Below are positions 1 through 62,465 of a stretch of DNA of 64,000 nucleotides, piece after piece. How positions within the stretch are numbered: the stretch's first letter is position 1; each line of letters begins with the position of its first letter. The stretch spans positions 62,001 through 126,000 of the forward strand of contig NZ_JAPONB010000003.1 in NCBI RefSeq assembly GCF_026676115.1, read 5' to 3'. The notes under the pieces were generated by a model, which had not been told where the DNA came from, did no database searches, and saw only the letters and a list, made by a program, of their open reading frames with translations. Made by a program: the position numbers and the translations under genes. Source of the stretch: Salinimicrobium sp. TH3 (GTDB taxonomy: Bacteria > Bacteroidota > Bacteroidia > Flavobacteriales > Flavobacteriaceae).

Positions 1-92
1 TCTTAAAAGGTGGAAGATGACTCATATCCTTTAGTATACTCACTTTAGACTTTCCTTAACTTAAGCTTTTAAGAAAAAATCGTTTTATTATC

Positions 93-100
93 TACCTTTG
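93..100 (+). promoter_or_regulatory. Probable -7 promoter box of the cupredoxin gene
   Basis: TACCTTTG matches the Bacteroidota -7 consensus TAnnTTTG exactly and lies 53 bases before the ATG at 154. I see no clear TTG at -33. The first 150 bases contain no other recognisable gene. Confidence 0.45.
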
Positions 101-153
101 ACTATTATCTCAAAGAATGAGATGAAATTATAAACCAAAAAACGATTAATAAA

Positions 154-732: not shown

Positions 733-762
733 AAGGCTTTCCTCACAGGAAGCCTTTTTTTA
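733..762. terminator. Bidirectional intrinsic terminator
   Basis: AAGGCTTTCCT, loop CAC and AGGAAGCCTT form a stem with one bulged T, followed by a run of T. It ends the cupredoxin gene and also covers the stop codon of the convergent mlaD gene. Confidence 0.8.
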
Positions 763-1758
763 TTCATCGGGTTTTGCTTCTTCCCTTTGTTTTATTCTCG
801 CCTGCTTCTCAAAATACCTTCTTAATAAAATATTGTGCTGCAGCGCTTCCATGCTTTCATCGAATTTTTTAGTGGCTTTTGCAATATTCTCCAGGGTTGC
901 ATCGAGTTTGTCTACGGCCCCGGGATCATTGAGCAAATAGTCAAGAGTACCTTCACCTTTCCTTATATCATACGATACCTGCTCGAGATTAGTGGTCATG
1001 TTGCTTATTTGCAGAGCAGAAATTTCCAGGTTGGTAATGATCCCCTCAATTTGTTTGGCAGCTGTGGTATCGCTAAGTAATACCCCTGCAACACTCTCTT
1101 TATAACTCACTTCATTAATAATAGCATTGATACGGTTGACCATCGCTGAAACATTTTGAGTGGTTTGCCGCAAACCTTCTATGCTCTTTTTAAAGTTGCC
1201 CGCCATCTCCTCATCCTTAATTAGAGCCCCGAGTGTGCCTTCACCCTTGTTTATACTATTTGTGATCTTTAAAAGGTCGGCAGTTAGGAGCGCCGCGTTT
1301 TCATTTGTGGTATTTAAAGTGGTAAGCATGTCGGCAGTGGCAATTTTACTTATAGAAGCAATAGTATCCCCAAACTTTACCGGAGGCGCCAGGCCCGAAT
1401 TATTTTCCCCCGGCAGGAGATTAACCACCATACTGCCCACCAATCCATCGGAACTTATGGTGGCAAGAGAGTTCTTTCTAATGAGGTTCATGGTGCGTTC
1501 ATCAACCCTCATACTCACTGCTATGCTGGTATCATTGATTATTTGGATATCCTTTACTGTTCCCACGTTGACTCCGGCAAAACGCACGTTGTTCCCACGT
1601 TGCAGGCCACTTACATCCTTAAAGACCGAAATGATGATACTATTATCTCCAAACAGGTTCTGGCGGTTACCAATAAAATAAACCGCTAAAACAAAGATGG
1701 TGATTCCAAGGATCACAAAGATTCCCAATCTCAGGTTTTGTGTATTTGAATTTTTCAT
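760..1758 (-). CDS. mlaD: MlaD-family MCE-domain lipid transport protein
   Basis: Substrate-binding component of an Mla-type ABC system that moves phospholipids between the inner and outer membranes. One N-terminal membrane helix (about residues 12-30) is followed by a single MCE domain (about 40-115) with the typical DVSGLQRGNNVRFAGVNVG segment. A long helical C-terminal region (about 120-310) resembles the tube-forming part of MCE proteins. At 332 residues it is longer than E. coli MlaD (183), as is usual in Bacteroidota. It is the last gene of mlaE-mlaF-mlaD, six bases after mlaF. No mlaB, mlaC or mlaA homologue is nearby. Confidence 0.92.
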   Translation of the reverse strand: MKNSNTQNLRLGIFVILGITIFVLAVYFIGNRQNLFGDNSIIISVFKDVSGLQRGNNVRFAGVNVGTVKDIQIINDTSIAVSMRVDERTMNLIRKNSLATISSDGLVGSMVVNLLPGENNSGLAPPVKFGDTIASISKIATADMLTTLNTTNENAALLTADLLKITNSINKGEGTLGALIKDEEMAGNFKKSIEGLRQTTQNVSAMVNRINAIINEVSYKESVAGVLLSDTTAAKQIEGIITNLEISALQISNMTTNLEQVSYDIRKGEGTLDYLLNDPGAVDKLDATLENIAKATKKFDESMEALQHNILLRRYFEKQARIKQREEAKPDE

Positions 1759-1764
1759 CTTTTT

Positions 1765-2529
1765 TCATTTAAAGAAGGCCTGAATTTTCGGGTCTTCAGA
1801 AGTTGATAGTTCCTTAAAAGTTCCTTCTGCGTAATTGGTTCCCTCCAGTAACAGTATCATTCGGTCTGAGATCACCCTGGCGCAGTCCACATCATGAGTA
1901 ATGATCAAGGATGAAGTCTTGTATTTTTTCTGAATATCCATCATCAATTTAATAATTTCTTTTGCGGTTATAGGATCCAGCCCTGTTGTAGGCTCATCAT
2001 ATAAAATTATCCTGGGTTTAAGAATAAGGGCACGTGCCAGGGCGATCCTTCGTTGCATTCCGCCGGAAAGCTCTTCGGGCATGAGATCGATTGTCTTAGC
2101 CAATCCCACATTATTTAACGCTTCCAGTACAAGTTCCTCAGTATTTTCAATATTCATTCTCTTAGTGTGACGTCTTAGCGGAAATTCCAGGTTTTCTCTC
2201 ACGGTCATGGAATCATATAATGCGCTCCCCTGAAACAAAAATCCTATCTCCGCCCGTAACTCATCCATTTTGGTTTGGTCCAGCTTGCTGATATCCTCGC
2301 CCAAGACTTCTATTGTGCCGCTATCTGGTTCCATTAAACCTATAAGGCATTTGATCATAACCGATTTTCCGGAACCTGATTTCCCCATAAGAACCAGGTT
2401 TTCATTTTCATACATTTCCAGATTAAAATTGTTTAAAACAACCTGATCTCCAAATTGCTTCTGCAGGTTATGAATTTGTATTACCGGCTTTCCTTTATGA
2501 GAGGAGGAATATGTATTTTCTTCCTTCAT
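1765..2529 (-). CDS. mlaF: MlaF-type ABC transporter ATPase
   Basis: ATPase that powers the MlaE permease. The 254-residue protein is a single ABC domain: Walker A GKSGSGKS at residues 49-56, Q-loop in GFLFQGSALYDSMTV, signature LSGGMQRR, Walker B IILYDEPTTGLDP and the switch His in IITHD. SALYDSMTV after the Q-loop is characteristic of the Mla/Ttg2/Mkl group. It lies one base downstream of mlaE and six bases before mlaD, so the three genes are one transcript. Confidence 0.94.
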   Translation of the reverse strand: MKEENTYSSSHKGKPVIQIHNLQKQFGDQVVLNNFNLEMYENENLVLMGKSGSGKSVMIKCLIGLMEPDSGTIEVLGEDISKLDQTKMDELRAEIGFLFQGSALYDSMTVRENLEFPLRRHTKRMNIENTEELVLEALNNVGLAKTIDLMPEELSGGMQRRIALARALILKPRIILYDEPTTGLDPITAKEIIKLMMDIQKKYKTSSLIITHDVDCARVISDRMILLLEGTNYAEGTFKELSTSEDPKIQAFFK

Positions 2530-2530
2530 A

Positions 2531-3310
2531 TTATCCGTATATAAGGTCTGTGAGAAAAACTGCTATAAAGTCAATAATGAAAAGCAGCATACTTGTATAT
2601 ACCACAGCCGAATTAGAAGCCCGGCCCACGCCGGCTGTTCCTTTACTGCTGTTGTAGCCTTTAAAACATCCTACCAATCCAATCGCAAAACCAAAAAAGA
2701 AAGATTTGGCAGTTGCCGGAAGGAGGTCGCTAAAAGCCAGGGCCTCAAAAACCTGATTAAAGTACAGGGTGAAAGACACCTGTCCCTTTACATTTTCCAC
2801 AATGGCCGAACCTATAAGTGCAACAAAATCTCCAAAAAGTATGAGCAGGGGCAGCATGAGTGTTGCTGCAAGAATACGTGTTACAACCAGGAATTTAAAA
2901 GGATTGGTTCCCGAAACTTCCATGGCGTCTATCTGCTCGGTAACTTTCATAGAACCCAGTTCAGCACCTATACTTGAACCTATACGTCCTGCACAAATAA
3001 GAGCAATGATCACTGGTCCTATTTCCCGAACAATTGAAATACTTATCATGTTGGGAATCCAGGAGGAGGCCCCAAATTCTTCAAGGGTAGGCCGGGATTG
3101 CAGGGTGAAAACAAGTCCTAGTATGAAGCCTGTAACTGCAACCAATAGAAGGGATTTATTGCCCATTTGGTAACACTGTCTCAAGAATTCCCGGAATTCA
3201 ATGGGAGGACTAACCAATTCCTTAAAAAACCGGCCTGCAAAACGTGCCAATGCTCCTGTTTCCGTAAAAAAGGAGGAAAGGTTAGCGACCATGGGAAAAT
3301 TTCGGGTCAT
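2531..3310 (-). CDS. mlaE: MlaE-type ABC transporter permease
   Basis: Membrane permease of the phospholipid transporter, 259 residues, with about five hydrophobic segments. The family-typical block SISIVREIGPVIIALICAGR precedes a GSSIGAELGSMKVTEQIDAM loop, the hallmark of the MlaE/Ttg2B family. The ATG at 3310 gives a normal N-terminus; a second Met seven codons in is also possible. First gene of the minus-strand operon. Confidence 0.94.
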   Translation of the reverse strand: MTRNFPMVANLSSFFTETGALARFAGRFFKELVSPPIEFREFLRQCYQMGNKSLLLVAVTGFILGLVFTLQSRPTLEEFGASSWIPNMISISIVREIGPVIIALICAGRIGSSIGAELGSMKVTEQIDAMEVSGTNPFKFLVVTRILAATLMLPLLILFGDFVALIGSAIVENVKGQVSFTLYFNQVFEALAFSDLLPATAKSFFFGFAIGLVGCFKGYNSSKGTAGVGRASNSAVVYTSMLLFIIDFIAVFLTDLIYG

Positions 3311-6470: not shown

Positions 6471-6597
6471 GCTATAAAAGCATCTGTTTGCTCTTATATT
6501 AGTTCTTGAAATTGACAGTAATTATGGTAATTTCTATACAGATGTAAAACTAATCAGTAAATTAGAGAGAATGTTTTATTAATTTATTTAACCAGCA

Positions 6598-7545
6598 ATG
6601 ATCATCACTCTAACCGTTAATCCTGCTCTTGATATATATTCGACAACAGAGAAATTTGAGCCAAATGAAAAACTCCGTTGCAAAAAACCACTTATTGATC
6701 CGGGAGGAGGCGGAGTGAATGTTTCCCGGGTCATCAAAAGACTGGGAGGGGAATCAATAGCTGTTTATTCCAAAGGCGGACATACAGGCAAACTTTTCTC
6801 CGATTTGCTAAAAAAAGAGGGGGTAAATGAGGATTCCGTAAAGGTGAAGAATGACCTGAGACAGAACTTTGCCATTACCGAAACTTCCACTGGAAATCTT
6901 TACCGTTTCGGTTTTCCCGGAGCCGAACTGGAGAATTCTGAATATGAAGCTTTACTGGAAAAAGTAGATAAATGCGAAAAAGGATCATTCCTTGTTGCAA
7001 GCGGAAGCCTTCCACCCGGTGCACCATCTGATTTCTACGCCAGGGCAGCGGCAAGAGCAAATAACTGCGGACTTCAATTTGTGCTTGATACTTCCGGAAA
7101 ATCTTATAAGGGCGTACTGGAGCAGGGAGCTTTCCTTTTAAAACCTAATAAAAATGAACTTAAGGATATCACGGGGGAAGCAGTAGAGAGCTTAGAACAA
7201 CAAAAAAATGCTTTACTGCACATCCTTAACGAATACTCCGTGGAGATCGTTGTTCTCTCTTTGGGAGGAGAAGGAGCACTTTTGGCTACAAAGGGAGAGG
7301 TGTGGCATTATCCTGCACCAAAGGTAGAGCATGTAAGTTCCATTGGGGCAGGAGACAGTATGGTTGCTGGGATCGTCTATAGCCTGGCGGAAGGACATCC
7401 CGTAGAAACAGCTATTTTATATGGTTTAGCCTGTGGTAGTGCTACTATAAAATCTCCGGGTACCGAGTTACTTCAGAAAAAAGATGTGGAGTTTCTTTAT
7501 GAGAAGCTGCTTAAACAAACTATGGGAAAGGGTAAAAAGATCTGA
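6598..7545 (+). CDS. pfkB: PfkB-family phosphofructokinase
   Basis: A 315-residue ribokinase-fold sugar-phosphate kinase of the PfkB / 1-phosphofructokinase / tagatose-6-phosphate kinase subgroup. The N-terminus MIITLTVNPALDIYS and the glycine-rich DPGGGGVNVSRVIKRLGG are characteristic. The C-terminal signature SIGAGDSMVAG places the catalytic Asp at residue 253. It would phosphorylate fructose-6-phosphate, or fructose-1-phosphate, at the entry to lower glycolysis. It is the first gene of a four-gene cluster with a P-type ATPase, a HAD/TPP fusion and a GH65 phosphorylase. The last three are separated by about ten bases; the gap from pfkB to the ATPase is 46 bases. A homologue (Rv2029c) is a DosR dormancy gene in M. 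tuberculosis. Confidence 0.9.
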   Translation: MIITLTVNPALDIYSTTEKFEPNEKLRCKKPLIDPGGGGVNVSRVIKRLGGESIAVYSKGGHTGKLFSDLLKKEGVNEDSVKVKNDLRQNFAITETSTGNLYRFGFPGAELENSEYEALLEKVDKCEKGSFLVASGSLPPGAPSDFYARAAARANNCGLQFVLDTSGKSYKGVLEQGAFLLKPNKNELKDITGEAVESLEQQKNALLHILNEYSVEIVVLSLGGEGALLATKGEVWHYPAPKVEHVSSIGAGDSMVAGIVYSLAEGHPVETAILYGLACGSATIKSPGTELLQKKDVEFLYEKLLKQTMGKGKKI

Positions 7546-7591
7546 AATATAAAAACTTTCCGCTTTGAGAAAAAATTTAAAAAAATAGATC

Positions 7592-10402
7592 ATGGAAGAA
7601 AGTACAGACCGGAATCATAAAATCAAAGACGCTTACCGAAAAACGGGGGATAAAGTGGCTGGCGAACTTTCATCACACCTTGAAAAAGGCTTAACAGAAG
7701 AGGAAGCGGAAAAGCGGCTGAAAAATCATGGTCTGAACAAATTAAAGGAGGGGGAGGAGCGCAGTATCTGGGACCTTATTCTGTCACAAATCAACAATCC
7801 GGTAATTTACCTGCTCTTTGCAGCCGCTGCCCTCGCGCTTATTTTTGGGGATATTCCCGAGGGTATTGCAATTTTTATAGTGCTTCTCGTCAATACAATC
7901 ATAGGTTTCTGGATGGAATTTCAGGCACAAAAGTCTATGAAGGCGCTTAAGAAACTCGATAAGATTATGGCCACGGTTATCAGGAATTCTGAAGAGAAGG
8001 AAATCAATGCAGAAAAAATAGCGCCAGGGGATATTATTAAAATAGAAGCCGGAGATCTCATTCCCGCAGATGCCAGGATTCTTGAAGCTACAGAGCTAAA
8101 GGTAGACGAATCCCCATTAACCGGAGAATCTGTTCCAGTAGAGAAAAATCCGGAAGTAATTGAGGAGGAACTGCAGGTTGCCGATCGCCTGAACATACTT
8201 TACAAAGGTACTGCCGTCACTGCAGGAACGGCAATCGCTCTTGTCTTTGCTACCGGTATGGATACCCAGGTTGGTAACATTTCTTCCCTGGTAGAGGAGC
8301 AGGACAAGGAAGAGACGCCGCTTAACAGCAAACTGAACAAACTCACCAAAAGGCTCATTTGGGTAATCCTTGCTATGGCAGCCGCTTTTTTCTTCTTTGG
8401 CTGGCTCGCAGGGAAAGACCTGTATCAACTGGTACAAACTTCTATTGCCTGGTCTATTGCTGCGATTCCTGAAGGTTTGCCAATAGTCGCAAGTATCGCC
8501 CTGGCCCGGGGAATGGTAAGGCTTTCCAAAAAGAGCGTTTTAATAAAGAGCCTTGGCGCTGTTGAAACGCTGGGAGAGACCACGGTGATCTTTACAGATA
8601 AAACGGGAACTCTTACTAAGAATGAACTCACCGTCCATAGCTTTTGCCTGCCTCAGGAAAAGCTGTTGAAGGTTGACTGGCACGGGAATAAACCTCAACT
8701 GGATGGCGAGAAGCAACAAAGCAGCGAAACCAATTTTAAGGAGATGCTAAAAATTGCTGTTTTGGCCAATGATGCCTCCCTCAAGGAACCGGAAAACAAT
8801 ACTTCGGAAAAGGCTGAAGTTAAAGAGAAGTCGGAGGTGAACCGTAATCCTGAAGCTTCCGAAGGTTCAGATGATCAACCCGAAGCGGAGGACGGGGAAA
8901 TATCTGCCAAAGGAGATCCCCTGGAGATTGCCCTGCTTGATTTTGTAAGCAAATTTGATCCGGAAGTATATGGGGAACTGCAACAATTGCAGCGGGAACT
9001 ACACGATCCTTTTGATTCAGAATCTATGGTCATGGGAACTATTTATAGAGATGACGGGGATTTATACGTTGCCGGAAAAGGGTCTACAGATGCTATTTTG
9101 GCCCGTTCCAAAAAGATTCTAAAAAATGGAAAACCCGAAGAATTGAATGAAGAGGAAAAAGAGGCATGGAAGAACAGGAATAATGAAATGGCAGAAGATG
9201 GTCTGCGGGTGCTGGGCTTTGCCTACAAAAAAATAAATGATCTGCCCACCGGGGAAGAGGCTGAAGATTTTTTACATGAACTGGTATTTGTTGGACTACT
9301 GGGGTTCCTGGATCCTCCCCGTAAAGAAGTTACGGCGGCCATAGAAACCTGTAAAGCTGCCGGCATAAAGGTGGTGATGGTAACCGGAGATCATCCAGGA
9401 ACAGCCACAAACGTGGGGCGGGAGGTAAAGATCTTTTCAAAAAAAGAAGAAAAACAAGGGGAAGCCGTTCTTCATGGGAAGGATCTGAATAAAGAATTTG
9501 AGAGGGAGAACCCGGAAAAACTGGTAAATACCCCGATATTTTCACGCGTGGACCCAGAGCAAAAGTTAAACTTAATAAGCCATTTTCAGGAACTGGGGGA
9601 AATAGTGGCCATGACGGGAGACGGTGTCAACGACGCCCCGGCTCTCAAAAAAGCGAATATTGGGATCGCTATGGGAAAACGAGGCACACAGGTGGCCCAG
9701 GAAGTGGCAGATGTGGTGCTAAAAGATGATTCGTTTAATTCTATTGTCACAGCTGTCGAGCAGGGGCGTATCATATTTGGAAATATAAGAAGGTTTGTTC
9801 TTTATCAACTTTCCTATCACCTGGCCGAAATCATCCTTATTGCTCTTGTAAGTTTCTCTTTATTCATTCTGCCTATCCTGCCTTTGCAGTTGCTTTTCCT
9901 TAACCTGCTTTCAGATGTTTTTCCGGCACTGGCTCTTGGAATTGGGGAAGGGACCCATAACGTTATGAAGATGCCACCAAAAGATCCCAAAGAACCTATT
10001 ATCACCCGAAAGAACTGGCTGCAAATTGTTGTGTACGGAGTGATTATAGCCATAAGTGTTACAGGTGCTTATTTTTATTCCCACTTTTATTGGGATGAGA
10101 CAGAAGGGATCAACAATAATATTGCTTTTCTAAGTCTGGCTTTTTCTCAGTTTCTGCACGTTTTGAATATGCGCGAGGGTTGGGAACCGGTTTTCAATAA
10201 CCAGGTTACGCGTAACAAGTATGTATGGATGGCGGTGATCTTTTGTATAGCTGCTGTTTTTACAGCCTACTTCATTCCCGTAGTGGCCGAGGTTCTTAAT
10301 TTACAGCCTTTACAGCCAAGACATTGGGGTCTAATCGCCATTGCCAGTATTTTACCCACCCTGGTCATTCAAACAATTAAACACATTAAAAAAGATTTTT
10401 AA
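7592..10402 (+). CDS. P2-type cation-transporting ATPase (CtpF / Ca-ATPase-like)
   Basis: A 936-residue P-type ATPase. Order: actuator domain with TGES at 177-180, M4 with PEGLP at 293-297, phosphorylation motif DKTGTLT with Asp336, nucleotide-binding domain, hinge TGDGVNDAPA near residue 680, and a four- to six-helix C-terminal membrane part. M6 reads NLLSDVFPALALG and M5 has a Glu in SYHLAEI, so Glu in M4 and Asn/Asp in M6 match site II of Ca-ATPases, while the Asn of site I in M5 is replaced by His. This suggests one main ion site. Residues about 397-438 form an acidic Glu/Ser-rich insert absent from textbook members. The mycobacterial relative CtpF is in the DosR regulon. The ion (Ca, Mn or other) cannot be fixed by reading. 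Confidence 0.9.
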   Translation: MEESTDRNHKIKDAYRKTGDKVAGELSSHLEKGLTEEEAEKRLKNHGLNKLKEGEERSIWDLILSQINNPVIYLLFAAAALALIFGDIPEGIAIFIVLLVNTIIGFWMEFQAQKSMKALKKLDKIMATVIRNSEEKEINAEKIAPGDIIKIEAGDLIPADARILEATELKVDESPLTGESVPVEKNPEVIEEELQVADRLNILYKGTAVTAGTAIALVFATGMDTQVGNISSLVEEQDKEETPLNSKLNKLTKRLIWVILAMAAAFFFFGWLAGKDLYQLVQTSIAWSIAAIPEGLPIVASIALARGMVRLSKKSVLIKSLGAVETLGETTVIFTDKTGTLTKNELTVHSFCLPQEKLLKVDWHGNKPQLDGEKQQSSETNFKEMLKIAVLANDASLKEPENNTSEKAEVKEKSEVNRNPEASEGSDDQPEAEDGEISAKGDPLEIALLDFVSKFDPEVYGELQQLQRELHDPFDSESMVMGTIYRDDGDLYVAGKGSTDAILARSKKILKNGKPEELNEEEKEAWKNRNNEMAEDGLRVLGFAYKKINDLPTGEEAEDFLHELVFVGLLGFLDPPRKEVTAAIETCKAAGIKVVMVTGDHPGTATNVGREVKIFSKKEEKQGEAVLHGKDLNKEFERENPEKLVNTPIFSRVDPEQKLNLISHFQELGEIVAMTGDGVNDAPALKKANIGIAMGKRGTQVAQEVADVVLKDDSFNSIVTAVEQGRIIFGNIRRFVLYQLSYHLAEIILIALVSFSLFILPILPLQLLFLNLLSDVFPALALGIGEGTHNVMKMPPKDPKEPIITRKNWLQIVVYGVIIAISVTGAYFYSHFYWDETEGINNNIAFLSLAFSQFLHVLNMREGWEPVFNNQVTRNKYVWMAVIFCIAAVFTAYFIPVVAEVLNLQPLQPRHWGLIAIASILPTLVIQTIKHIKKDF

Positions 10403-10411
10403 ATAATTGAT

Positions 10412-11935
10412 ATGAAATACTACCTAAAAGCGATAATAACAGATCTTGACGGCGTGATCACAAGTACCGCCCGGCAACATGAAAAAGCCTGGAGAAAAAC
10501 ATTTGATGATTACAATGAGCGGAGGAAGAGAGAATGGAAAAAAGAATTTCTTCCTTTTTCTGAAAATGATTATGCCCGATATATAAATGGAATACCGCGT
10601 TACGACGGAGTAAATAATTTCCTTGTTTCAAGAGGGCTGGAACTACCTTTTGGCTCTCCCGAAGATGCCGCTGGATTCCAAACCGTCTGCGGGCTTGGAA
10701 ATCTTAAAAACCAGAATTTTAGACAGGTTATCGAGGAAGAAGGAGTTGATATATTTGAAAAAAACGTTCAGCAATTAAGGGACTGGAAAAAACAGGGGCT
10801 TAAAATAGGACTCATTTCTGCCAGTAGGAACTGCAGGGAGATCCTGAAACTTGCGGGTCTTCAAAATGACCTTTTTGACACTGTAGTAGATGGCATTACT
10901 TCTGCAGAAAGGAACATTGAGGGGAAACCGGCACCCGGTATTTTCCTGGAAGCAGCAAAAGAGTTGGGTGTTAAACCCGACCTCGCCATGATCATTGAAG
11001 ATGCACAGGCTGGAGTAGAAGCAGGAAGAAATGGAAACTTCAGGTTGATAATAGGAATTGAAAATGCTTCTTCCAAAGAGGAATTACTGGAACATGGTGC
11101 ACATTTGGCAGTGAAGAATCTTCAGGAATTAGATCTGGAGTTTAAAAAAGGCCGTGAACCAAAAGAACTACCGTCGGCAATTGAGAATTTTCCAGAGATA
11201 AAGGAAAAATATCTGCAGAAAAAACCTTTGCTGTTTCTCGACTTTGATGGAACACTCGCACCTATAGTAGAACATCATGCAGACGCAGCAATTTCTGAAG
11301 AAATGAGGGAACTGGTGAGGAAACTGGCAGAAGTTTATCCGGTGGCGGTGATAAGCGGTCGGGGAATGGGTGATGTTAAGCAGCGGGTCAACCTTCCAGG
11401 ACTTTATTATGCCGGGAGTCACGGCTATGAGATCTCCGGTCCAGACGGTTTTTTTAAAGAAAATGAAGAAGCTCAAAAGGTCCTTCCGCTTTTCGACGAA
11501 ATTGAACCCATTCTTAGGGAGCAGCTTCAGGGTATTAAGGGAGTGGATTTTGAGCGAAAGAAGTTTACCCTTGCCATTCACTATCGCCAGGTAAAGCCCG
11601 AATTTGAGCAGGAAGTTCATGACAGGGTGAATGGAGTACTTAGAGACTACCCCGAACTTACCGCAGCCGGGGGCAAGAAAGTAATTGAAATAAGACCCAA
11701 TATTGACTGGCACAAAGGAAGAGCAGTTGAATTCCTGAAGCGGGAACTTTCAAATCAAGAGAATCCTTTTTCTATCTATGTGGGTGACGATGTCACAGAT
11801 GAAGATGCCTTTAGGGAAGTGGATCATAGCCTGGGAATTCTTGTGGGAGACCACGACCAGGATACTTTCGCCGATTATTCTCTGCAGGACCTGGAGGAAG
11901 TAAAAACCTTTTTTAGAAACCTTATTAAAACCTGA
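10412..11935 (+). CDS. Fused HAD phosphatase/mutase and trehalose-6-phosphate phosphatase
   Basis: A 507-residue two-domain protein. Residues about 1-245 form a HAD domain of the beta-phosphoglucomutase group, with the nucleophile motif ITDLDGV near residue 10 and an EDAQAGVEAGRNGNF motif. Residues about 268-500 are a trehalose-6-phosphate phosphatase (OtsB) domain with LFLDFDGTLAPI at about 271-282, VISGRGM, AGSHGYE and GDDVTDEDAF. The two activities would release trehalose from trehalose-6-phosphate and interconvert beta-glucose-1-phosphate and glucose-6-phosphate. No OtsA synthase is present. Together with the next gene it reproduces, as two proteins, the domain order of M. tuberculosis Rv2006 (OtsB1). 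Stop and next start are ten bases apart. Confidence 0.9.
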   Translation: MKYYLKAIITDLDGVITSTARQHEKAWRKTFDDYNERRKREWKKEFLPFSENDYARYINGIPRYDGVNNFLVSRGLELPFGSPEDAAGFQTVCGLGNLKNQNFRQVIEEEGVDIFEKNVQQLRDWKKQGLKIGLISASRNCREILKLAGLQNDLFDTVVDGITSAERNIEGKPAPGIFLEAAKELGVKPDLAMIIEDAQAGVEAGRNGNFRLIIGIENASSKEELLEHGAHLAVKNLQELDLEFKKGREPKELPSAIENFPEIKEKYLQKKPLLFLDFDGTLAPIVEHHADAAISEEMRELVRKLAEVYPVAVISGRGMGDVKQRVNLPGLYYAGSHGYEISGPDGFFKENEEAQKVLPLFDEIEPILREQLQGIKGVDFERKKFTLAIHYRQVKPEFEQEVHDRVNGVLRDYPELTAAGGKKVIEIRPNIDWHKGRAVEFLKRELSNQENPFSIYVGDDVTDEDAFREVDHSLGILVGDHDQDTFADYSLQDLEEVKTFFRNLIKT

Positions 11936-11945
11936 GGTGTGAAAA

Positions 11946-14363
11946 ATGAAAGACTGGATCTTAAAATATGATAATTACTCCCCACAGGAGGAGTTGCTGC
12001 GAGAATCGCTTTGCACTCTGGGTAACGGGTATTTTGCTACCCGGGCAGCTGCAGAGGGGTCTGTAGCTGGAGAAAACCATTATCCCGGCACATATCTCGC
12101 CGGGGGATACAACCGTCTTGAAACTACCATAGCCGGACGGGTCATTGAAAATGAGGACCTTGTGAACTGGCCAGACTGGACGCTGCTAAGGTTTAGACTG
12201 GAAAATGGCGACTGGTTCAATATAGATGCTGTTGAGATCCTTGAGTTTGAACAGTCTCTTAACCTTCGCGAAGCGATCCTGGAGCGTAGAATGAAATTTA
12301 GGGACAAAGAGAACAGGGAAACACAGCTTTGCAGTCGCAGGGTTGTAAGTATGTCAAAGATGCATCTGGCAGCAATAGAGTGGGAATTGAGGCCTTTAAA
12401 TTGGCAAGGTTCAATAACCATTCATTCCGCCTTAAATGGAAAAGTTTCCAATACAGGAGTTGCCAGGTATAGAGCCCTTAATGGTCAACATCTTGTCCCG
12501 CTCGATACGGGGAGTTTTGAAGAAGACGGTATTTATCTAAAGGTGAGAAGCAGCCAGTCTGAAATTGTAATGGTCCAGGCCTGTAAAACCAGGGTAAGCT
12601 TTGAACTTTATGAACCTTCCGTGGAGAGGAGAAGTATCATCGAAAAGGATTACGTGGCCCAGGAACTCATTTTTGAAGCCCGGGAAAACAAGGCCATAAC
12701 TGTTGAAAAGCTGGTAGCAGTGTATACTTCCAGGGACATGGCCATTGCCGATCCTCTGTGCGAGGCAAAGAAGCTGGTAACACGAATTCCGGGATTTGGC
12801 GAGCTTCTGCGGTTTCACAAAATGGCCTGGGAGGAACTTTGGGGGCAGAGTGATATCCTTTTAAAAGCTGATGGGAATAATGATCAATTGTTGCTAAGGC
12901 TGCACATTTTCCATCTTTTCCAAACCTTTAGCTTGAAAACCATTGATGAAGATGTAGGTATACCCGCAAGAGGATGGCATGGCGAAGCCTATCGCGGGCA
13001 TGTATTCTGGGATGAGCTTTTTATATTTCCTTTCTACAACATCACTATTCCCGAACTCACCCGGGCATTGCTCATGTACCGTTACAGGAGATTACCCGAG
13101 GCACGGTTTGCAGCCAGTAGCGAAGGCTACAAAGGTGCTATGTTTCCCTGGCAGAGTGGGAGCAACGGGAGGGAAGAAACACAAATTATTCACCTTAACC
13201 CCGAATCGGGGAACTGGCTGCCAGATAATACTCATTTACAGCGGCATGTGAATGCAGCTATAGCCTATAATGTGTGGCAGTATTTTCAGGTGAGTGGTGA
13301 CCTGCAGTTCCTGGCATTTTATGGTGCCGAATTGCTCCTGGATATTGCAAAATTCTGGGCCAGCAAAGTGAAGTACAATGAGGAGAGAGGAAAATATGAG
13401 ATACATGAAGTAGTTGGCCCCGATGAGTACCATACCTCCTATCCCAATTCTTCAGAGCCCGGTCTTCGAAACAATGCCTATACAAATATAATGGCTGTAT
13501 GGACGCTGAAACACGCACTCCTCACCATTCAAAAACTAAATAATCGGAGAGCAAGTGACCTGTTGAGGTTAATGGAAATAGATGATGAAGAACTTTCCCG
13601 CTGGCAGAACATTTGTGAAAATATGTTCGTTCCGTTTCTGGAGGATGGAAAGATAATCGAACAATTTGAAGGTTTTGATAAGCTGAAGGATTTAGATTGG
13701 AAATGGTACCACGAAAAATATGGAGAGACCATGAGACTGGACCGTATCCTTGAGAAGGAGGGAGACGATGTCAAAAATTACAAGGCGGTAAAACAACCTG
13801 ACGTTTTAATGCTCTTTTTTCTTTTTTCTTCCGAAGAGCTCAAAGAACTTTTCGATCTAATGAAATACCCCTTTGACCCCAAAGAGCAAATTCCTGCAAA
13901 TATTGATTATTACGAGGCGATCACCTCTCATGGTTCTACCTTGAGTAAAGTTGTTTATTCCTGGGTTTATGCCAGGTCTCACAGGGAGCAATCCTGGCAT
14001 GATTTTAAAGAAGCTCTAATTAGTGATTTTTCAGACGTGCAGGGAGGGACTACTGCCGAGGGTGTACATATGGGAGCCATGGCGGGTACTGTAGATCTAA
14101 TTCACCGCTGCTACACGGGAATAGAATTTAAAAAAGAAAGCCTATACTTCAATCCGGGATTACCTCAAAATGTTGAAGAAATAAGTTTTAGATGTAGGTA
14201 CCGGCGGCATTGGCTGGAGGTAAAACTCACACAGGACGTTCTATTTCTTAAAAGCCATGGTGGCTGGCAGGACCTTATTAAAATTGTGGTAAATGAAGAG
14301 GAGTTTGTCATGAGAAAAGGGGAGGAGAGAAGCTTTACCTACCGGAAGAAAGAAGCCCAGTAA
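11946..14363 (+). CDS. Glycoside hydrolase family 65 disaccharide phosphorylase
   Basis: An 805-residue GH65 protein: N-terminal beta-sandwich (to about 270), helical linker, (alpha/alpha)6 barrel and small C-terminal sheet domain. The catalytic acid is Glu494 in VVGPDEYH. A phosphate-binding-type loop HGSTLS and the conserved SDVQGGTTAEGVHMGAMAGT stretch are visible. Family members phosphorolyse trehalose, maltose or kojibiose to beta-glucose-1-phosphate and a sugar. Linkage to a phosphoglucomutase-like and a trehalose-6-phosphate phosphatase domain points to trehalose, but the substrate is inference. It is the last gene of the pfkB cluster; a different operon begins 78 bases later. Confidence 0.92.
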   Translation: MKDWILKYDNYSPQEELLRESLCTLGNGYFATRAAAEGSVAGENHYPGTYLAGGYNRLETTIAGRVIENEDLVNWPDWTLLRFRLENGDWFNIDAVEILEFEQSLNLREAILERRMKFRDKENRETQLCSRRVVSMSKMHLAAIEWELRPLNWQGSITIHSALNGKVSNTGVARYRALNGQHLVPLDTGSFEEDGIYLKVRSSQSEIVMVQACKTRVSFELYEPSVERRSIIEKDYVAQELIFEARENKAITVEKLVAVYTSRDMAIADPLCEAKKLVTRIPGFGELLRFHKMAWEELWGQSDILLKADGNNDQLLLRLHIFHLFQTFSLKTIDEDVGIPARGWHGEAYRGHVFWDELFIFPFYNITIPELTRALLMYRYRRLPEARFAASSEGYKGAMFPWQSGSNGREETQIIHLNPESGNWLPDNTHLQRHVNAAIAYNVWQYFQVSGDLQFLAFYGAELLLDIAKFWASKVKYNEERGKYEIHEVVGPDEYHTSYPNSSEPGLRNNAYTNIMAVWTLKHALLTIQKLNNRRASDLLRLMEIDDEELSRWQNICENMFVPFLEDGKIIEQFEGFDKLKDLDWKWYHEKYGETMRLDRILEKEGDDVKNYKAVKQPDVLMLFFLFSSEELKELFDLMKYPFDPKEQIPANIDYYEAITSHGSTLSKVVYSWVYARSHREQSWHDFKEALISDFSDVQGGTTAEGVHMGAMAGTVDLIHRCYTGIEFKKESLYFNPGLPQNVEEISFRCRYRRHWLEVKLTQDVLFLKSHGGWQDLIKIVVNEEEFVMRKGEERSFTYRKKEAQ

Positions 14364-18450: not shown

Positions 18451-18771
18451 CTAAGTTAAAGCGGGAAAGCTTACCGCCAGGATTAACAGGTTTATTATTG
18501 TGCCATATTTTGCATCTTCCCAGTTAAGGGTAATTAAAAACTGCGAAAGCAAAGCTCCACTTATAGATAAAACTGGCCAGAAGGGGTAGGCGTTGAGGAA
18601 ATAAACATTAGCTAAAACCAGAAGTACAGTGCATGCGAACCAAAGAGCCCCTTCAGAGATGCTAATCTTTCTGGAAATCGTGGGAAGAAAGTCTGTATAA
18701 AAAGCTTTGACAAGCCCCATAAGGTGTAGAATAGCATGTAATAATAATAAGAGTGAGATTAGAACTTTCAT
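18451..18771 (-). CDS. Small four-helix membrane protein, unknown function
   Basis: I do not recognise a characterised family. The 106-residue protein has about four hydrophobic segments; the first contains LLLLHAILHLMGLVKAF with two His and a Gly, a pattern seen in several small flavobacterial membrane proteins. Its start overlaps the stop of the universal stress protein gene by four bases (ATGA), so the two are co-translated and may work together. Confidence 0.7.
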   Translation of the reverse strand: MKVLISLLLLLHAILHLMGLVKAFYTDFLPTISRKISISEGALWFACTVLLVLANVYFLNAYPFWPVLSISGALLSQFLITLNWEDAKYGTIINLLILAVSFPALT

Positions 18772-19625
18772 TGAACTGTAGCAGTTTTATTCCTGGTTCT
18801 TTTGGGGCTTCTAAATGGTATTTGCTGCTCTTGTGGGATTCCCTGTAAAATCATTACAGGAATTTTACTGTCGGCTATTGCATTCACGATGCGAGAGGTA
18901 GTTGGCCCTGCAGGAAAAATTGATTGAGAAAGAGGTACTATATGCAAATCATAATTGTCCTTCTGCATAGTTCTACCTAAATGGCTTGCAACGTGATCTG
19001 TAATCAATGTTCCGACTTTAGGATGGTAAACTTCAAACAATTGATTTAGTTCATATTCATCTCTTGCTACCTGGGAATGATTTATTTTGCCTGAATACAT
19101 TTTGATAATTTCCACATCCAGGTCATGGTTTCCAAAAAGCCTTTTAAAGGGAGTTAGAGTGGCCTGTTTTATTTCCACATGAGGTTGTAGTGTTATCAGA
19201 ATCCTTTTAGGTAGGGTGAACTTTTTCTCCTTTGGAATAAAAAGTAGAGGTGATTTTGAATTCCGGAAAAACTCATAAGGCAACTGCAATGTTTTTTCCA
19301 ATACTGCTGTACTTCCAATAATAAGTGAGTTGGGATCTACCTGCTCTTCCAGGGCTTTTCCGGGAAAAAGAAGTTGTATATTAATCTTTTTGGAAGGGTA
19401 GATCTTTGCAATTTCTTTCTGAAGTTTTTGAAGTCTTTGACCGGCCTCATTCTGGATACAGTTGATCCATTCTTTATCCTCAAATTTTGTAGAGCTATAA
19501 GCGGCAGCTTCAGGAAGATTCAACATGAAGAATGTGCATTCCTCTTCTCTCATCAAACCAAGTGCATAAAGGATCACCCGGGTAGATGATGAAGAAAAAT
19601 CCATTGGAATAATCACATTTTTCAT
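18768..19625 (-). CDS. Tandem universal stress protein (UspA family)
   Basis: A 285-residue protein with two Usp domains. The first starts at the N-terminus with KNVIIPMDFSSSSTRVILYA; the second starts near residue 140 with KRILITLQPH. The ATP-binding GxxG(x9)G(S/T) motif is degenerate in both halves, so nucleotide binding is doubtful. Double-domain Usp proteins are common in Bacteroidota beside genes for low-oxygen or stationary-phase life. It is about 4 kb from the pfkB/P-type ATPase module. It is co-translated with a small membrane protein. Confidence 0.85.
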   Translation of the reverse strand: MKNVIIPMDFSSSSTRVILYALGLMREEECTFFMLNLPEAAAYSSTKFEDKEWINCIQNEAGQRLQKLQKEIAKIYPSKKINIQLLFPGKALEEQVDPNSLIIGSTAVLEKTLQLPYEFFRNSKSPLLFIPKEKKFTLPKRILITLQPHVEIKQATLTPFKRLFGNHDLDVEIIKMYSGKINHSQVARDEYELNQLFEVYHPKVGTLITDHVASHLGRTMQKDNYDLHIVPLSQSIFPAGPTTSRIVNAIADSKIPVMILQGIPQEQQIPFRSPKRTRNKTATVQ

Positions 19626-60776: not shown

Positions 60777-62465
60777 ATGGCAGATGATAAGAAAGTAATT
60801 TTCTCCATGTCGGGGTTAACAAAGACATACAAAGGAGAGAATACGCCGGTTTTAAAAAATATCTATTTGAGCTTCTTTTATGGAGCCAAAATAGGTATCC
60901 TAGGGCTAAACGGTTCAGGTAAATCCACCCTTCTAAATATCATAGCAGGAAAGGAAAAGAATTACCAGGGAGATGTTGTTTTTGCTCCTGGCTATACCGT
61001 GGGAATGCTGGAGCAGGAGCCCGAACTGGATGAGGATAAGACAGTACTTGAGGTGGTGAAGGAAGGTGCAGCCGAAACTGTTGCCATCCTGGAAGAATAT
61101 AATAAGATCAACGATATGTTTGGTCTACCTGAGGTGTATGAGGATCCCGATAAGATGCAGAAACTTATGGATAAGCAGGCTGCGCTGCAGGATCAAATTG
61201 ACGCCAGCAATGCCTGGGAGCTTGATACAAAGCTTGAAATCGCGATGGATGCATTGAGAACTCCCGACTCTGATAAAAAGATAGGAGTACTTTCAGGAGG
61301 GGAAAGAAGAAGGGTGGCGTTATGCCGACTTCTGCTTCAGGAGCCAGATGTGTTGCTGCTTGATGAGCCAACCAACCACCTGGATGCAGAATCTGTATTG
61401 TGGCTGGAACAACACCTTCAGCAATATAAAGGTACAGTGATTGCTGTAACTCACGACCGTTACTTCCTTGATAATGTTGCAGGATGGATCCTTGAGCTGG
61501 ACAGGGGAGAGGGTATCCCCTGGAAAGGAAACTACTCTTCGTGGTTAGACCAGAAAGCAAAACGTCTTGCACAGGAACAAAAACAGGCAAGTAAACGCCA
61601 AAAGACCCTGGAGCGAGAGCTTGAATGGTCGCGTATGGCGCCAAAGGGAAGGCAGGCAAAGCAAAAAGCCCGTCTAAACAACTATGATAAACTCCTTAGC
61701 CAGGATCAAAAGCAAATGGACGAGCAGTTGGAAATTTACATTCCAAATGGCCCGCGCCTGGGAACAAACGTGATCGAGGCCAAAGGTGTAAGTAAGGCGT
61801 TTGGTGACAAGCTGCTCTATGACGATCTAAACTTTAAGCTCCCTCAAGCGGGAATCGTGGGAATTATAGGGCCTAACGGTGCAGGTAAGACCACCATTTT
61901 CAAAATGATCATGGGAGAGGAAAAACCCGATAAGGGAACCTTTGAAGTGGGAGAGACAGCAAAAATAGCTTATGTAGATCAAAGCCATTCCAATATCGAT
62001 CCTGAAAAGACCATTTGGCAGAACTTTAGCGATGAGCAGGAGTTGATTATGATGGGTGGCCGCCAGGTAAATTCAAGAGCCTATTTAAGCAGGTTCAACT
62101 TTAGCGGAAGTGAACAAAATAAAAAAGTCAGTAAACTTTCCGGTGGGGAAAGAAACCGTCTTCACCTTGCAATGACGTTGAAGGAAGAAGGGAACGTGTT
62201 GCTTTTGGATGAGCCTACCAACGATCTTGACGTAAATACTTTGCGGGCCCTGGAAGAGGGATTGGAGAATTTCGCCGGTTGTGCGGTGATCATTTCCCAC
62301 GACCGTTGGTTTATGGACAGGGTGTGTACCCATATCCTGGCTTTTGAAGGAAACTCTGAGGTCTATTTCTTTGAAGGCAGTTTCTCTGAATATGAGGAGA
62401 ATAAAAAGAAACGCCTGGGAGATGTCACCCCAAAAAGAATTAAGTACAAAAAGCTGGTAAGATAG
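60777..62465 (+). CDS. ettA: Energy-dependent translational throttle protein EttA (ABC-F)
   Basis: A 562-residue ABC-F ribosome-binding ATPase. Two ABC domains: Walker A GLNGSGKSTLL and GPNGAGKTTIF, signatures LSGGERRRVALCRLL and LSGGERNRLHLAM, and Walker B LLLDEPTNHLD and LLLDEPTNDLD. The linker arm between them contains basic SRMAPKGRQAKQKARLNNYD. Near the E. coli EttA length (555). Ends in a very strong terminator. Confidence 0.94.
   Translation: MADDKKVIFSMSGLTKTYKGENTPVLKNIYLSFFYGAKIGILGLNGSGKSTLLNIIAGKEKNYQGDVVFAPGYTVGMLEQEPELDEDKTVLEVVKEGAAETVAILEEYNKINDMFGLPEVYEDPDKMQKLMDKQAALQDQIDASNAWELDTKLEIAMDALRTPDSDKKIGVLSGGERRRVALCRLLLQEPDVLLLDEPTNHLDAESVLWLEQHLQQYKGTVIAVTHDRYFLDNVAGWILELDRGEGIPWKGNYSSWLDQKAKRLAQEQKQASKRQKTLERELEWSRMAPKGRQAKQKARLNNYDKLLSQDQKQMDEQLEIYIPNGPRLGTNVIEAKGVSKAFGDKLLYDDLNFKLPQAGIVGIIGPNGAGKTTIFKMIMGEEKPDKGTFEVGETAKIAYVDQSHSNIDPEKTIWQNFSDEQELIMMGGRQVNSRAYLSRFNFSGSEQNKKVSKLSGGERNRLHLAMTLKEEGNVLLLDEPTNDLDVNTLRALEEGLENFAGCAVIISHDRWFMDRVCTHILAFEGNSEVYFFEGSFSEYEENKKKRLGDVTPKRIKYKKLVR

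What the first reader, a model, noticed from the sequence alone, without database searches (positions are those of the whole stretch)
6598..14363. Flavobacterial operon that mirrors M. tuberculosis DosR dormancy genes
Seen: pfkB, a P2-type cation ATPase, a HAD/trehalose-6-phosphate phosphatase fusion and GH65 in a row, the last three about ten bases apart. Known: pfkB (Rv2029c), ctpF (Rv1997) and otsB1 (Rv2006) belong to the DosR hypoxia/dormancy regulon. Inference: the same toolkit (trehalose recycling, glycolytic entry, cation balance) forms a low-oxygen or persistence module here, possibly with the universal stress protein at 18768. This may be shared by ancestry or transfer.
Basis: partly seen in the sequence, partly recalled or inferred. 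Interest (0 to 1): 0.72.

Follow-up and report, generated by a model that had tools for sequence, protein, structure and literature searches.

The report
Trehalose-phosphate recycling operon beside stress genes
A marine-type bacterium carries four neighbouring genes that probably return a trehalose-making intermediate to energy metabolism; they use the same gene families that help the tuberculosis bacterium survive without oxygen, but the set looks assembled separately rather than copied as a block.

Summary
In detail: pfkB (6598-7545), a P2A cation ATPase (7592-10402), a beta-PGM-like HAD/T6P-phosphatase fusion (10412-11935) and GH65 (11946-14363) are intact and co-directional, with gaps of 46, 9 and 10 bases.
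Two corrections. (1) GH65 carries the residue pattern (DQGQDE) of trehalose-6-phosphate phosphorylases. OtsA, the maker of T6P, is in 28 of 28 handles (27 genomes) with the phosphatase locus against 31 of 198 Bacteroidota, and 0 of 27 have a glucose-family PTS. I read the module as a recovery shunt for self-made T6P: T6P to beta-G1P + G6P, then via PfkB into glycolysis, with the phosphatase as the other exit. (2) The DosR likeness is shared families, not a shared operon: Salinimicrobium GH65 and ATPase are rejected as sisters of Rhodococcus DosR-like-island homologues; PfkB is undecided. All four genes together were seen only in Salinimicrobium.
Low-oxygen induction is untested; no DosR- or FNR-like box was found upstream. 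Activity is inferred from sequence. The same GH65 type sits in OtsB1-like proteins of Rhodococcus, suggesting a testable function.

The parts
6598..7545 (+). PfkB-type hexose-phosphate kinase (6-phosphofructokinase II / 1-phosphofructokinase family); second isozyme beside PfkA at G000:C15:262050
   Evidence: Pfam PF00294 188 bits; TIGR03168 over cut-off; closest solved structure E. coli Pfk-2, 194 bits; PfkA in same genome
7592..10402 (+). P2A (Ca2+-type) cation-transporting ATPase; ion not established
   Evidence: Pfam; closest solved chains are the Listeria Ca2+ ATPase lmo0841, then human ATP2C1 and SERCA pumps
10412..11935 (+). fusion of a beta-phosphoglucomutase-like HAD (about residues 1-245) and trehalose-6-phosphate phosphatase (about 265-507); DxD and GDDxTDE motifs intact
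   Evidence: Pfam/NCBIfam; solved relatives beta-PGM 8h5s and T6P phosphatase 5gvx; alignment of 10 relatives
11946..14363 (+). GH65 phosphorylase with trehalose-6-phosphate phosphorylase pattern D71 Q403 G405 Q413 D427 E605; general acid E494, phosphate-site S664 T665 H708
   Evidence: Pfam, motif extraction against PMC8537180, alignment to CsKP, invariant columns, closest fold 9lb6
6550..6565 (.). palindrome CTAATCAGTAAATTAG beginning 48 bases before the pfkB start (45 in S. nanhaiense), kept in 4 of 4 Salinimicrobium loci; possible operator
   Evidence: genome-wide 4 sites, as many as the reversed control pattern, so the base pattern alone is not rarer or commoner than chance
18768..19625 (-). 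divergent tandem-domain universal stress protein
1..153 (.). edge nearest to the stress genes just outside the window: USPx3, Hsp20, response regulator-Crp at G000:C15:57192-61601 (window begins at 62001)

Best explanation
The operon is a trehalose-6-phosphate (T6P) branch-point module. OtsA (encoded elsewhere as an OtsA-OtsB fusion) makes T6P from UDP-glucose and G6P. The GH65 enzyme splits T6P with phosphate into beta-G1P and G6P; the beta-PGM-like half of the fusion turns beta-G1P into G6P; PfkB feeds the fructose-6-phosphate derived from it into glycolysis. The phosphatase half is the alternative exit to trehalose. Phosphorolysis keeps one phosphate bond, which pays when ATP is short, and either exit keeps T6P low. 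The P2A ATPase probably exports Ca2+ or another cation under the same condition. Shown: gene order, domain make-up, conserved catalytic residues, co-occurrence with OtsA, absence of a glucose-family PTS, nearness to stress genes. Inferred: T6P as substrate, direction, joint expression, low-energy or low-oxygen trigger. The likeness to the DosR regulon is repeated use of the same families in stress islands, not a transferred operon.
Against: No activity, expression or metabolite data. Phosphatase and phosphorylase compete for T6P, which is odd for a pure salvage route. One f18 row (L006, genome G145) has DQGQD as far as it is held and groups with T6P-pattern enzymes, yet G145 has no OtsA: the pattern can occur without OtsA. 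Within the held flanks S. nanhaiense and Zunongwangia keep the phosphatase without GH65, so salvage is dispensable there. Only OtsB2, not OtsB1, is reported to have T6P phosphatase activity in M. tuberculosis, and an otsB1 deletion had no obvious phenotype (PMC11046441 passage); another paper says the claim of no activity came without data (PMC12090744 passage). The GH65 specificity loops are low-confidence in the model (residues 53-71, 404-428). No FNR- or DosR-like box before pfkB; the conserved palindrome is absent from the USP/Hsp20 region.
Confidence: 0.55

Rival explanations
1. Reverse direction: beta-PGM makes beta-G1P from G6P, GH65 joins beta-G1P and G6P to T6P, and the phosphatase pulls the reaction to trehalose. 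The module then makes trehalose from two G6P without UDP-glucose.
For: All three enzyme activities point one way, and a phosphatase gene or domain stands beside this GH65 type even where the HAD is missing (Rubrobacter; L046). T6P synthesis from beta-G1P and G6P by a subgroup-22 enzyme was shown in vitro (PMC8537180 section 2).
Against: OtsA is present in every genome with the locus that was tried, so a second route is not needed; PfkB, PGI and aldolase neighbours fit breakdown better.
Confidence: 0.15
2. Osmotic or desiccation module: trehalose turnover and cation export serve salt stress in a halotolerant genus, with no link to oxygen.
For: Trehalose is a compatible solute (established knowledge); the two best plasmid hits of the ATPase are haloarchaeal; genus names such as Salinimicrobium and Litoribacter point to saline habitats (inference).
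Against: The lxa and DosR precedents for these families are oxygen- or starvation-linked; PfkB and T6P phosphorolysis do not serve solute build-up.
Confidence: 0.2
3. One reading: a DosR-like dormancy module shared with Actinobacteria by transfer of the gene block.
For: Same four families in Rhodococcus islands; Salinimicrobium PfkB + Rhodococcus PfkB is not rejected and fits slightly better than the free tree; all Bacteroidota GH65 + Rhodococcus GH65 is not rejected either (p-AU 0.31).
Against: Direct sister relation of Salinimicrobium with Rhodococcus rejected for GH65 and ATPase; gene order differs; the HAD half of the one Rhodococcus protein aligned is degenerate.
Confidence: 0.07

Closest known systems
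Lactococcus lactis trehalose-6-phosphate phosphorylase / beta-phosphoglucomutase pathway (Andersson 2001; seen only as cited in PMC8537180, PMC10969515 and PMC12125463)
   Same: GH65 T6P phosphorylase pattern with a beta-PGM-like partner that sends T6P to G6P
   Different: There T6P comes from PTS uptake (recalled); here no glucose-family PTS (0 of 27), OtsA is present in all genomes tried, and a T6P phosphatase, PfkB and an ATPase are attached
OtsB1 (Rv2006) of the DosR regulon and OtsB1-like proteins of Rhodococcus
   Same: Phosphatase and GH65 of the same kind in Rhodococcus, SQGQDE in 3 of 3 copies; OtsB1 is DosR-regulated (PMC12090744 passage), 1327 residues, function unknown (PMC11046441 passage)
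   Different: Here HAD-phosphatase and GH65 are two genes and the HAD half keeps its motifs; in the Rhodococcus protein it is reduced. The M. tuberculosis sequence was not examined; its HAD-phosphatase-GH65 make-up is recalled
lxa low-oxygen-activated locus of Burkholderia cenocepacia
   Same: USPs, alpha-crystallin, phosphofructokinase and a metallo-beta-lactamase-fold protein in one island (PMC6127331 passages); the same kinds lie here within about 27 kb
   Different: The words trehalose and ATPase do not occur in that paper's main text; expression is measured there and unknown here
Kojibiose and maltose phosphorylases of GH65
   Same: Fold, general acid, phosphate site
   Different: Specificity residues differ; the genome's second GH65 (C15:254859) with its own HAD of beta-PGM type is the maltose-phosphorylase-like one

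Membership tests
Trehalose-6-phosphate phosphorylase (GH65 subgroup 22) | GH65 fold with general acid Glu and phosphorylase-type phosphate site | tested here: met
   E494, S664-T665, H708; Foldseek/VIA to GH65 phosphorylases. The serine pair is Ser-Thr, as in 9lb6
Trehalose-6-phosphate phosphorylase (GH65 subgroup 22) | Motif DQGQDE at CsKP positions 64, 392, 394, 402, 416, 585 | tested here: met
   D71, Q403, G405, Q413, E605 by the CsKP alignment; D427 for position 416 is by choice of gap, HMMER drew W424 there (motif from PMC8537180)
Trehalose-6-phosphate phosphorylase (GH65 subgroup 22) | Phosphorolysis of T6P | not testable with these tools
   needs enzyme assay
T6P phosphatase | DxDGT and GDDxTDE catalytic motifs, TIGR00685 over cut-off | tested here: met
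beta-phosphoglucomutase | NCBIfam beta-PGM subfamily or equivalog over cut-off | tested here: not met
   TIGR02009 146 bits (cut-off 153), TIGR01990 103 (cut-off 189); hence called beta-PGM-like, although 8h5s aligns over 5-240 at 186 bits
DosR regulon / DosR-type island | Same gene families present in one region | tested here: met
   PfkB, P2 ATPase, phosphatase-GH65, USPs, Hsp20
DosR regulon / DosR-type island | DosR-type box upstream | tested here: not met
   Recalled box GGGACTNNNNAGTCCC, up to 3 mismatches: 15 sites in the window against 18.1 expected, none between 6338 and 6597
DosR regulon / DosR-type island | Neighbouring response regulator with GAF histidine kinase | tested here: inconclusive
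   A response regulator-Crp fusion and a PAS-LuxR protein were found; not every gene of the region was annotated
DosR regulon / DosR-type island | Shared descent of the block with the actinobacterial one | tested here: not met
   Direct sister relation rejected for GH65 and ATPase, PfkB undecided; Rhodococcus used as stand-in
DosR regulon / DosR-type island | Induction by low oxygen | not testable with these tools
   no expression data

The most novel reading that the evidence does not exclude
OtsB1-type modules, the orphan dormancy proteins of Actinobacteria included, are T6P phosphorylase-phosphatase machines working on self-made T6P; run backwards with beta-PGM they would make trehalose from two G6P without any nucleotide sugar.
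Probability: 0.15. Interest if true: 0.75.

Novelty: new variant of a known kind. Interest (0 to 1): 0.48.

Why it matters
It gives a concrete, cheap test of function for a group of proteins whose best-known member, OtsB1, is described as of unknown function although it belongs to the dormancy regulon. It also extends T6P phosphorolysis, described for PTS importers, to bacteria that make their own T6P, and it separates two ideas easily merged: stress islands of distant phyla can reuse the same families without sharing an operon by descent.

Tried and rejected
Operon transfer from Actinobacteria: direct sister relation rejected for GH65 and ATPase, open for PfkB. The first PfkB tree set Salinimicrobium apart from Pontibacter and Rhodococcus; the AU tests do not back that, so I make no claim from it.

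OtsA-free trehalose synthesis as the main reading: I expected OtsA to be missing; it is in 28 of 28 handles, so this became a rival. Searches were given 26 of the 31 retrieved loci; L046, L049, L057, L061 and L062 were not given.

OtsA as a clean marker of the GH65 pattern: mixed. 24 of 26 f18 rows have DQA[QP]D, one is truncated, one (L006, G145) has DQGQD; all 30 f18 genomes tried, G145 among them, lack OtsA (30 of the 82 f18 genomes matched).

Regulatory sites: FNR-type TTGATNNNNATCAA with one mismatch gave 5 sites in the window against 5.0 expected and none before pfkB, 3 against 1.8 in the left flank. The palindrome CTAAT-N6-ATTAG is kept before pfkB in 4 of 4 Salinimicrobium but occurs 4 times in the genome, equal to the reversed control, and not in the left flank with up to one mismatch; in 14 loci of other genera the best upstream match had 1 to 4 mismatches. 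Sigma-70-like sites did not exceed shuffles beyond their spread, terminator-like ones were fewer. Rfam: no match at gathering thresholds.

Dropped rows: in the GH65 tree the f18 fusions (L005-L032) were thinned to four, L002 and L003 (copies of the window) skipped; Kitasatospora, Citricoccus and a second Rhodococcus GH65 (L159, L161, L164) are not in it, I think because my ORF caller missed them; L072 and L004, duplicates, were removed. In the PfkB trees L075-L103 (short copies of L104-L131) and rows under 120 bits were dropped, and duplicates L135, L133 and L074 as well. In one search the rows L074, L118, L067, L126 and L145 were left out. L046, L049, L055, L059, L063, L039 and L042 are cut near a contig end, so absence of a neighbour there is weak (Nafulsella L055 above all); in L052 the phosphatase half was missed by my ORF caller though the tblastn match covers residues 5-470.

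A search for papers joining Rv2006 with 'glycosyl hydrolase family 65' found none, and the listings showed no title or abstract start that gives OtsB1 a T6P phosphorylase role; these cover only the held open-access library, and I read listings, not the papers, apart from the passages cited.
Full report
WHAT IS THERE. The window is G000:C15:62001-126000 of a 3.69 Mb genome; its nearest relatives, 92% and 77% identical in the fusion protein, are Salinimicrobium species, so I call it Salinimicrobium, an inference. After 78 bases follow a HlyD/MacA-like adaptor, a LolCE/FtsX-like permease and an ABC ATPase, also on the + strand. The USP at 18768 is a divergent one.

WHAT LIES OUTSIDE THE WINDOW. 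The 19 kb fetched around the left edge (L071) hold, at C15:57192-61601, three tandem USPs (Pfam 73-93 bits), an Hsp20 and a response regulator fused to a Crp-type domain, preceded by a beta-CASP RNase and an ATP-cone/Mrr protein. S. nanhaiense has an Hsp20 and a response regulator-Crp in the same place (L040). The whole span from the RNase to the USP at 18768 is about 27 kb.

WHO HAS IT. A search of 395 Bacteroidota found the full fusion in only 2 (the window's genome and G273, which appears to be the Litoribacter ruber genome also reached as G397, since its GT20 coordinates are the same); of the 88 matching genomes 82, all of family f18, match over the HAD half and 4 over the phosphatase half. 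The genome-contig scan gave 31 loci: Salinimicrobium, Litoribacter, Pontibacter, Zunongwangia, Nafulsella, Sunxiuqinia, Thermophagus, several MAGs, Syntrophaceae and Alphaproteobacteria. Of these 31, GH65 adjoins in 22, a PfkB lies in the held flanks in 14, and an ATPase of the window's lineage in 5. All four genes together: the window, L033 and L034, all Salinimicrobium. So the four-gene operon is, as far as seen, a genus-level assembly out of parts that associate widely. The close ATPase type (53% identity or more) was found in 6 of 27 genomes and in each within 10 kb of the phosphatase. PfkB occurs in 29 of 296 Bacteroidota; in the 28 such regions other than the window no phosphatase or GH65 gene was labelled nearby (three regions are short), so PfkB has other homes too.

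WHAT THE ENZYMES PROBABLY DO. De Beul and colleagues (PMC8537180; results section and legends read) showed that six positions foretell GH65 specificity; a T6P phosphorylase with DQGQDE, a trehalose phosphorylase with TRIGPP and a kojibiose phosphorylase with EEAPWS were among four predictions confirmed by assay. Mapped through the alignment to the kojibiose phosphorylase, the window's GH65 has D71, Q403, G405, Q413 and E605; position 416 is D427 if one gap is placed as in its relatives, W424 as HMMER drew it. My script read position 585 from E603; E603 and E605 are both invariant in the 16 rows, as are Q403, Q413 and D427, while G405 is not and D71 nearly so. In 22 retrieved loci the pattern is DQGQDE in 17, DQSQDE in 4, AQGQDE in 1; three Rhodococcus OtsB1-like proteins have SQGQDE; the second GH65 of this genome does not fit and looks like a maltose phosphorylase with its own beta-PGM-like HAD. 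The closest solved structure by sequence and by fold is 9lb6, named a trehalose-6-phosphate hydrolase in one list and a trehalose 6-phosphate phosphatase in the other; it shares the pattern by eye in the alignment. The predicted model is good overall (pLDDT 79.9) but poor exactly at the specificity loops, so it adds little on substrate.

WHERE T6P COMES FROM. GT20 (OtsA) is in 28 of 28 handles (27 genomes; 26 of the 31 loci were given) with the phosphatase locus and over cut-off in 31 of 198 Bacteroidota. This is partly expected for any phosphatase locus, and the genomes are related; counted by Bacteroidota genus or MAG it is 7 of 7 against 28 of 103. No glucose-family PTS EIIB was found in 27 (the same search rang in 5 of 14 controls), so import as T6P by that route is unlikely; other PTS families were not searched. 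As a contrast, 30 of 30 genomes of family f18, which carry HAD-GH65 fusions mostly of another pattern (DQA[QP]D in 24 of 26 rows), have no OtsA. One of them, G145, spoils the contrast: its L006 has DQGQD as far as held and groups with the Nitrobacter and Caballeronia enzymes, so such an enzyme can exist without OtsA. A trehalase-like GH15 N-domain is present in 16 of 27, next to OtsAB in this genome. Hence the reading that GH65 here works on T6P made by the cell. Both exits would also prevent T6P build-up; T6P accumulates in otsB mutants of some bacteria and a cited title calls it toxic (PMC12125463, passages).

CONTEXT ELSEWHERE. Pontibacter places PGI, HAD, phosphatase, GH65, PfkB and class II aldolase together in 8 of 9 loci, the outer two on the other strand. 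Croceicoccus and Indioceanicola plasmids have the fusion and GH65 within about 15 kb of PEP synthase, and Croceicoccus also near pfkB, enolase, GAPDH and PGK. Four Syntrophaceae or Deltaproteobacteria loci have it near molybdopterin-oxidoreductase genes that look formate-dehydrogenase-like (my label). Rhodococcus plasmids have DosR-like islands by gene content. Of the five ATPase relatives on plasmids that I opened, four lie near USPs (L138, L140, L141, L142) and one does not (L139).

SHARED DESCENT OR NOT. GH65: 17 Bacteroidota rows form one clade (support 100); Salinimicrobium + Rhodococcus is rejected, p-AU 7.3e-05; all Bacteroidota + Rhodococcus is not rejected, p-AU 0.31. ATPase: kinship with the two Rhodococcus island pumps rejected, p-AU 6.8e-07 and 1.5e-04; nearest are one S. 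nanhaiense paralogue and pumps of a haloarchaeon and Alphaproteobacteria, three of those four beside USPs. PfkB: neither Salinimicrobium + Rhodococcus (p-AU 0.58, likelihood slightly better than the free tree) nor + Pontibacter/Nafulsella (0.25) is rejected. In the plasmid search the Rhodococcus DK17 island PfkB was the best hit, 42%. These are quick trees with long branches.

REGULATION. No DosR-type or FNR-type box precedes pfkB. A palindrome CTAAT-N6-ATTAG begins 48 bases (45 in S. nanhaiense) before pfkB in 4 of 4 Salinimicrobium loci, also in S. nanhaiense where the upstream gene differs; it is not before the USP/Hsp20 genes. It may be an operator; its frequency in the genome equals the control.

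VERDICT. The useful new point is the T6P phosphorylase reading and its reach to OtsB1-like proteins. OtsB1 is said to be of unknown function, with phosphatase activity assigned to OtsB2 only and no obvious deletion phenotype (PMC11046441 passage); PMC12090744 (passages) notes it has not been characterised biochemically and that the claim of no activity came without data. All of it awaits assay.

Noticed in passing
L040:9617-11347 (Salinimicrobium nanhaiense): In-frame PfkB-T6P phosphatase fusion of 576 residues; ATPase, HAD half, GH65 and the flanking genes seen in its congeners are absent from the locus.
   Followed up: partly
f18 genomes; L005-L032: HAD-GH65 fusions of about 1060 residues, mostly with pattern DQA[QP]D, abound in one Bacteroidota family; 30 of 30 genomes tried lack OtsA: perhaps a different substrate.
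   Followed up: partly
L006 (G145:C51:56443-57156): An f18 HAD-GH65 with the DQGQD pattern that groups with Nitrobacter and Caballeronia plasmid enzymes, in a genome without OtsA: looks like a lone acquisition with an unknown T6P source.
   Followed up: no
L071:10970-17601 (G000:C15:54970-61601): beta-CASP RNase, ATP-cone/Mrr protein, three USPs, Hsp20 and a response regulator-Crp fusion just left of the window; homologues of the RNase/ATP-cone pair also stand near pfkB in G130 and G234.
   Followed up: partly
G000:C15:254859-255959 (L072): Second GH65 with its own beta-PGM-like HAD, maltose-phosphorylase-like.
   Followed up: partly
L141 (Salinigranum marinum plasmid): A haloarchaeal P2 ATPase, 41% identical to the window's, directly beside a USP: the USP-ATPase pairing crosses domains.
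   Followed up: no
L064:18741-22376: Rhodococcus OtsB1-like protein has a shortened HAD half that lacks the usual glycine and cap region, while phosphatase and GH65 look complete.
   Followed up: no
window 760-3310: MlaD, ABC ATPase and MlaE-type genes (lipid transport) on the - strand upstream.
   Followed up: no
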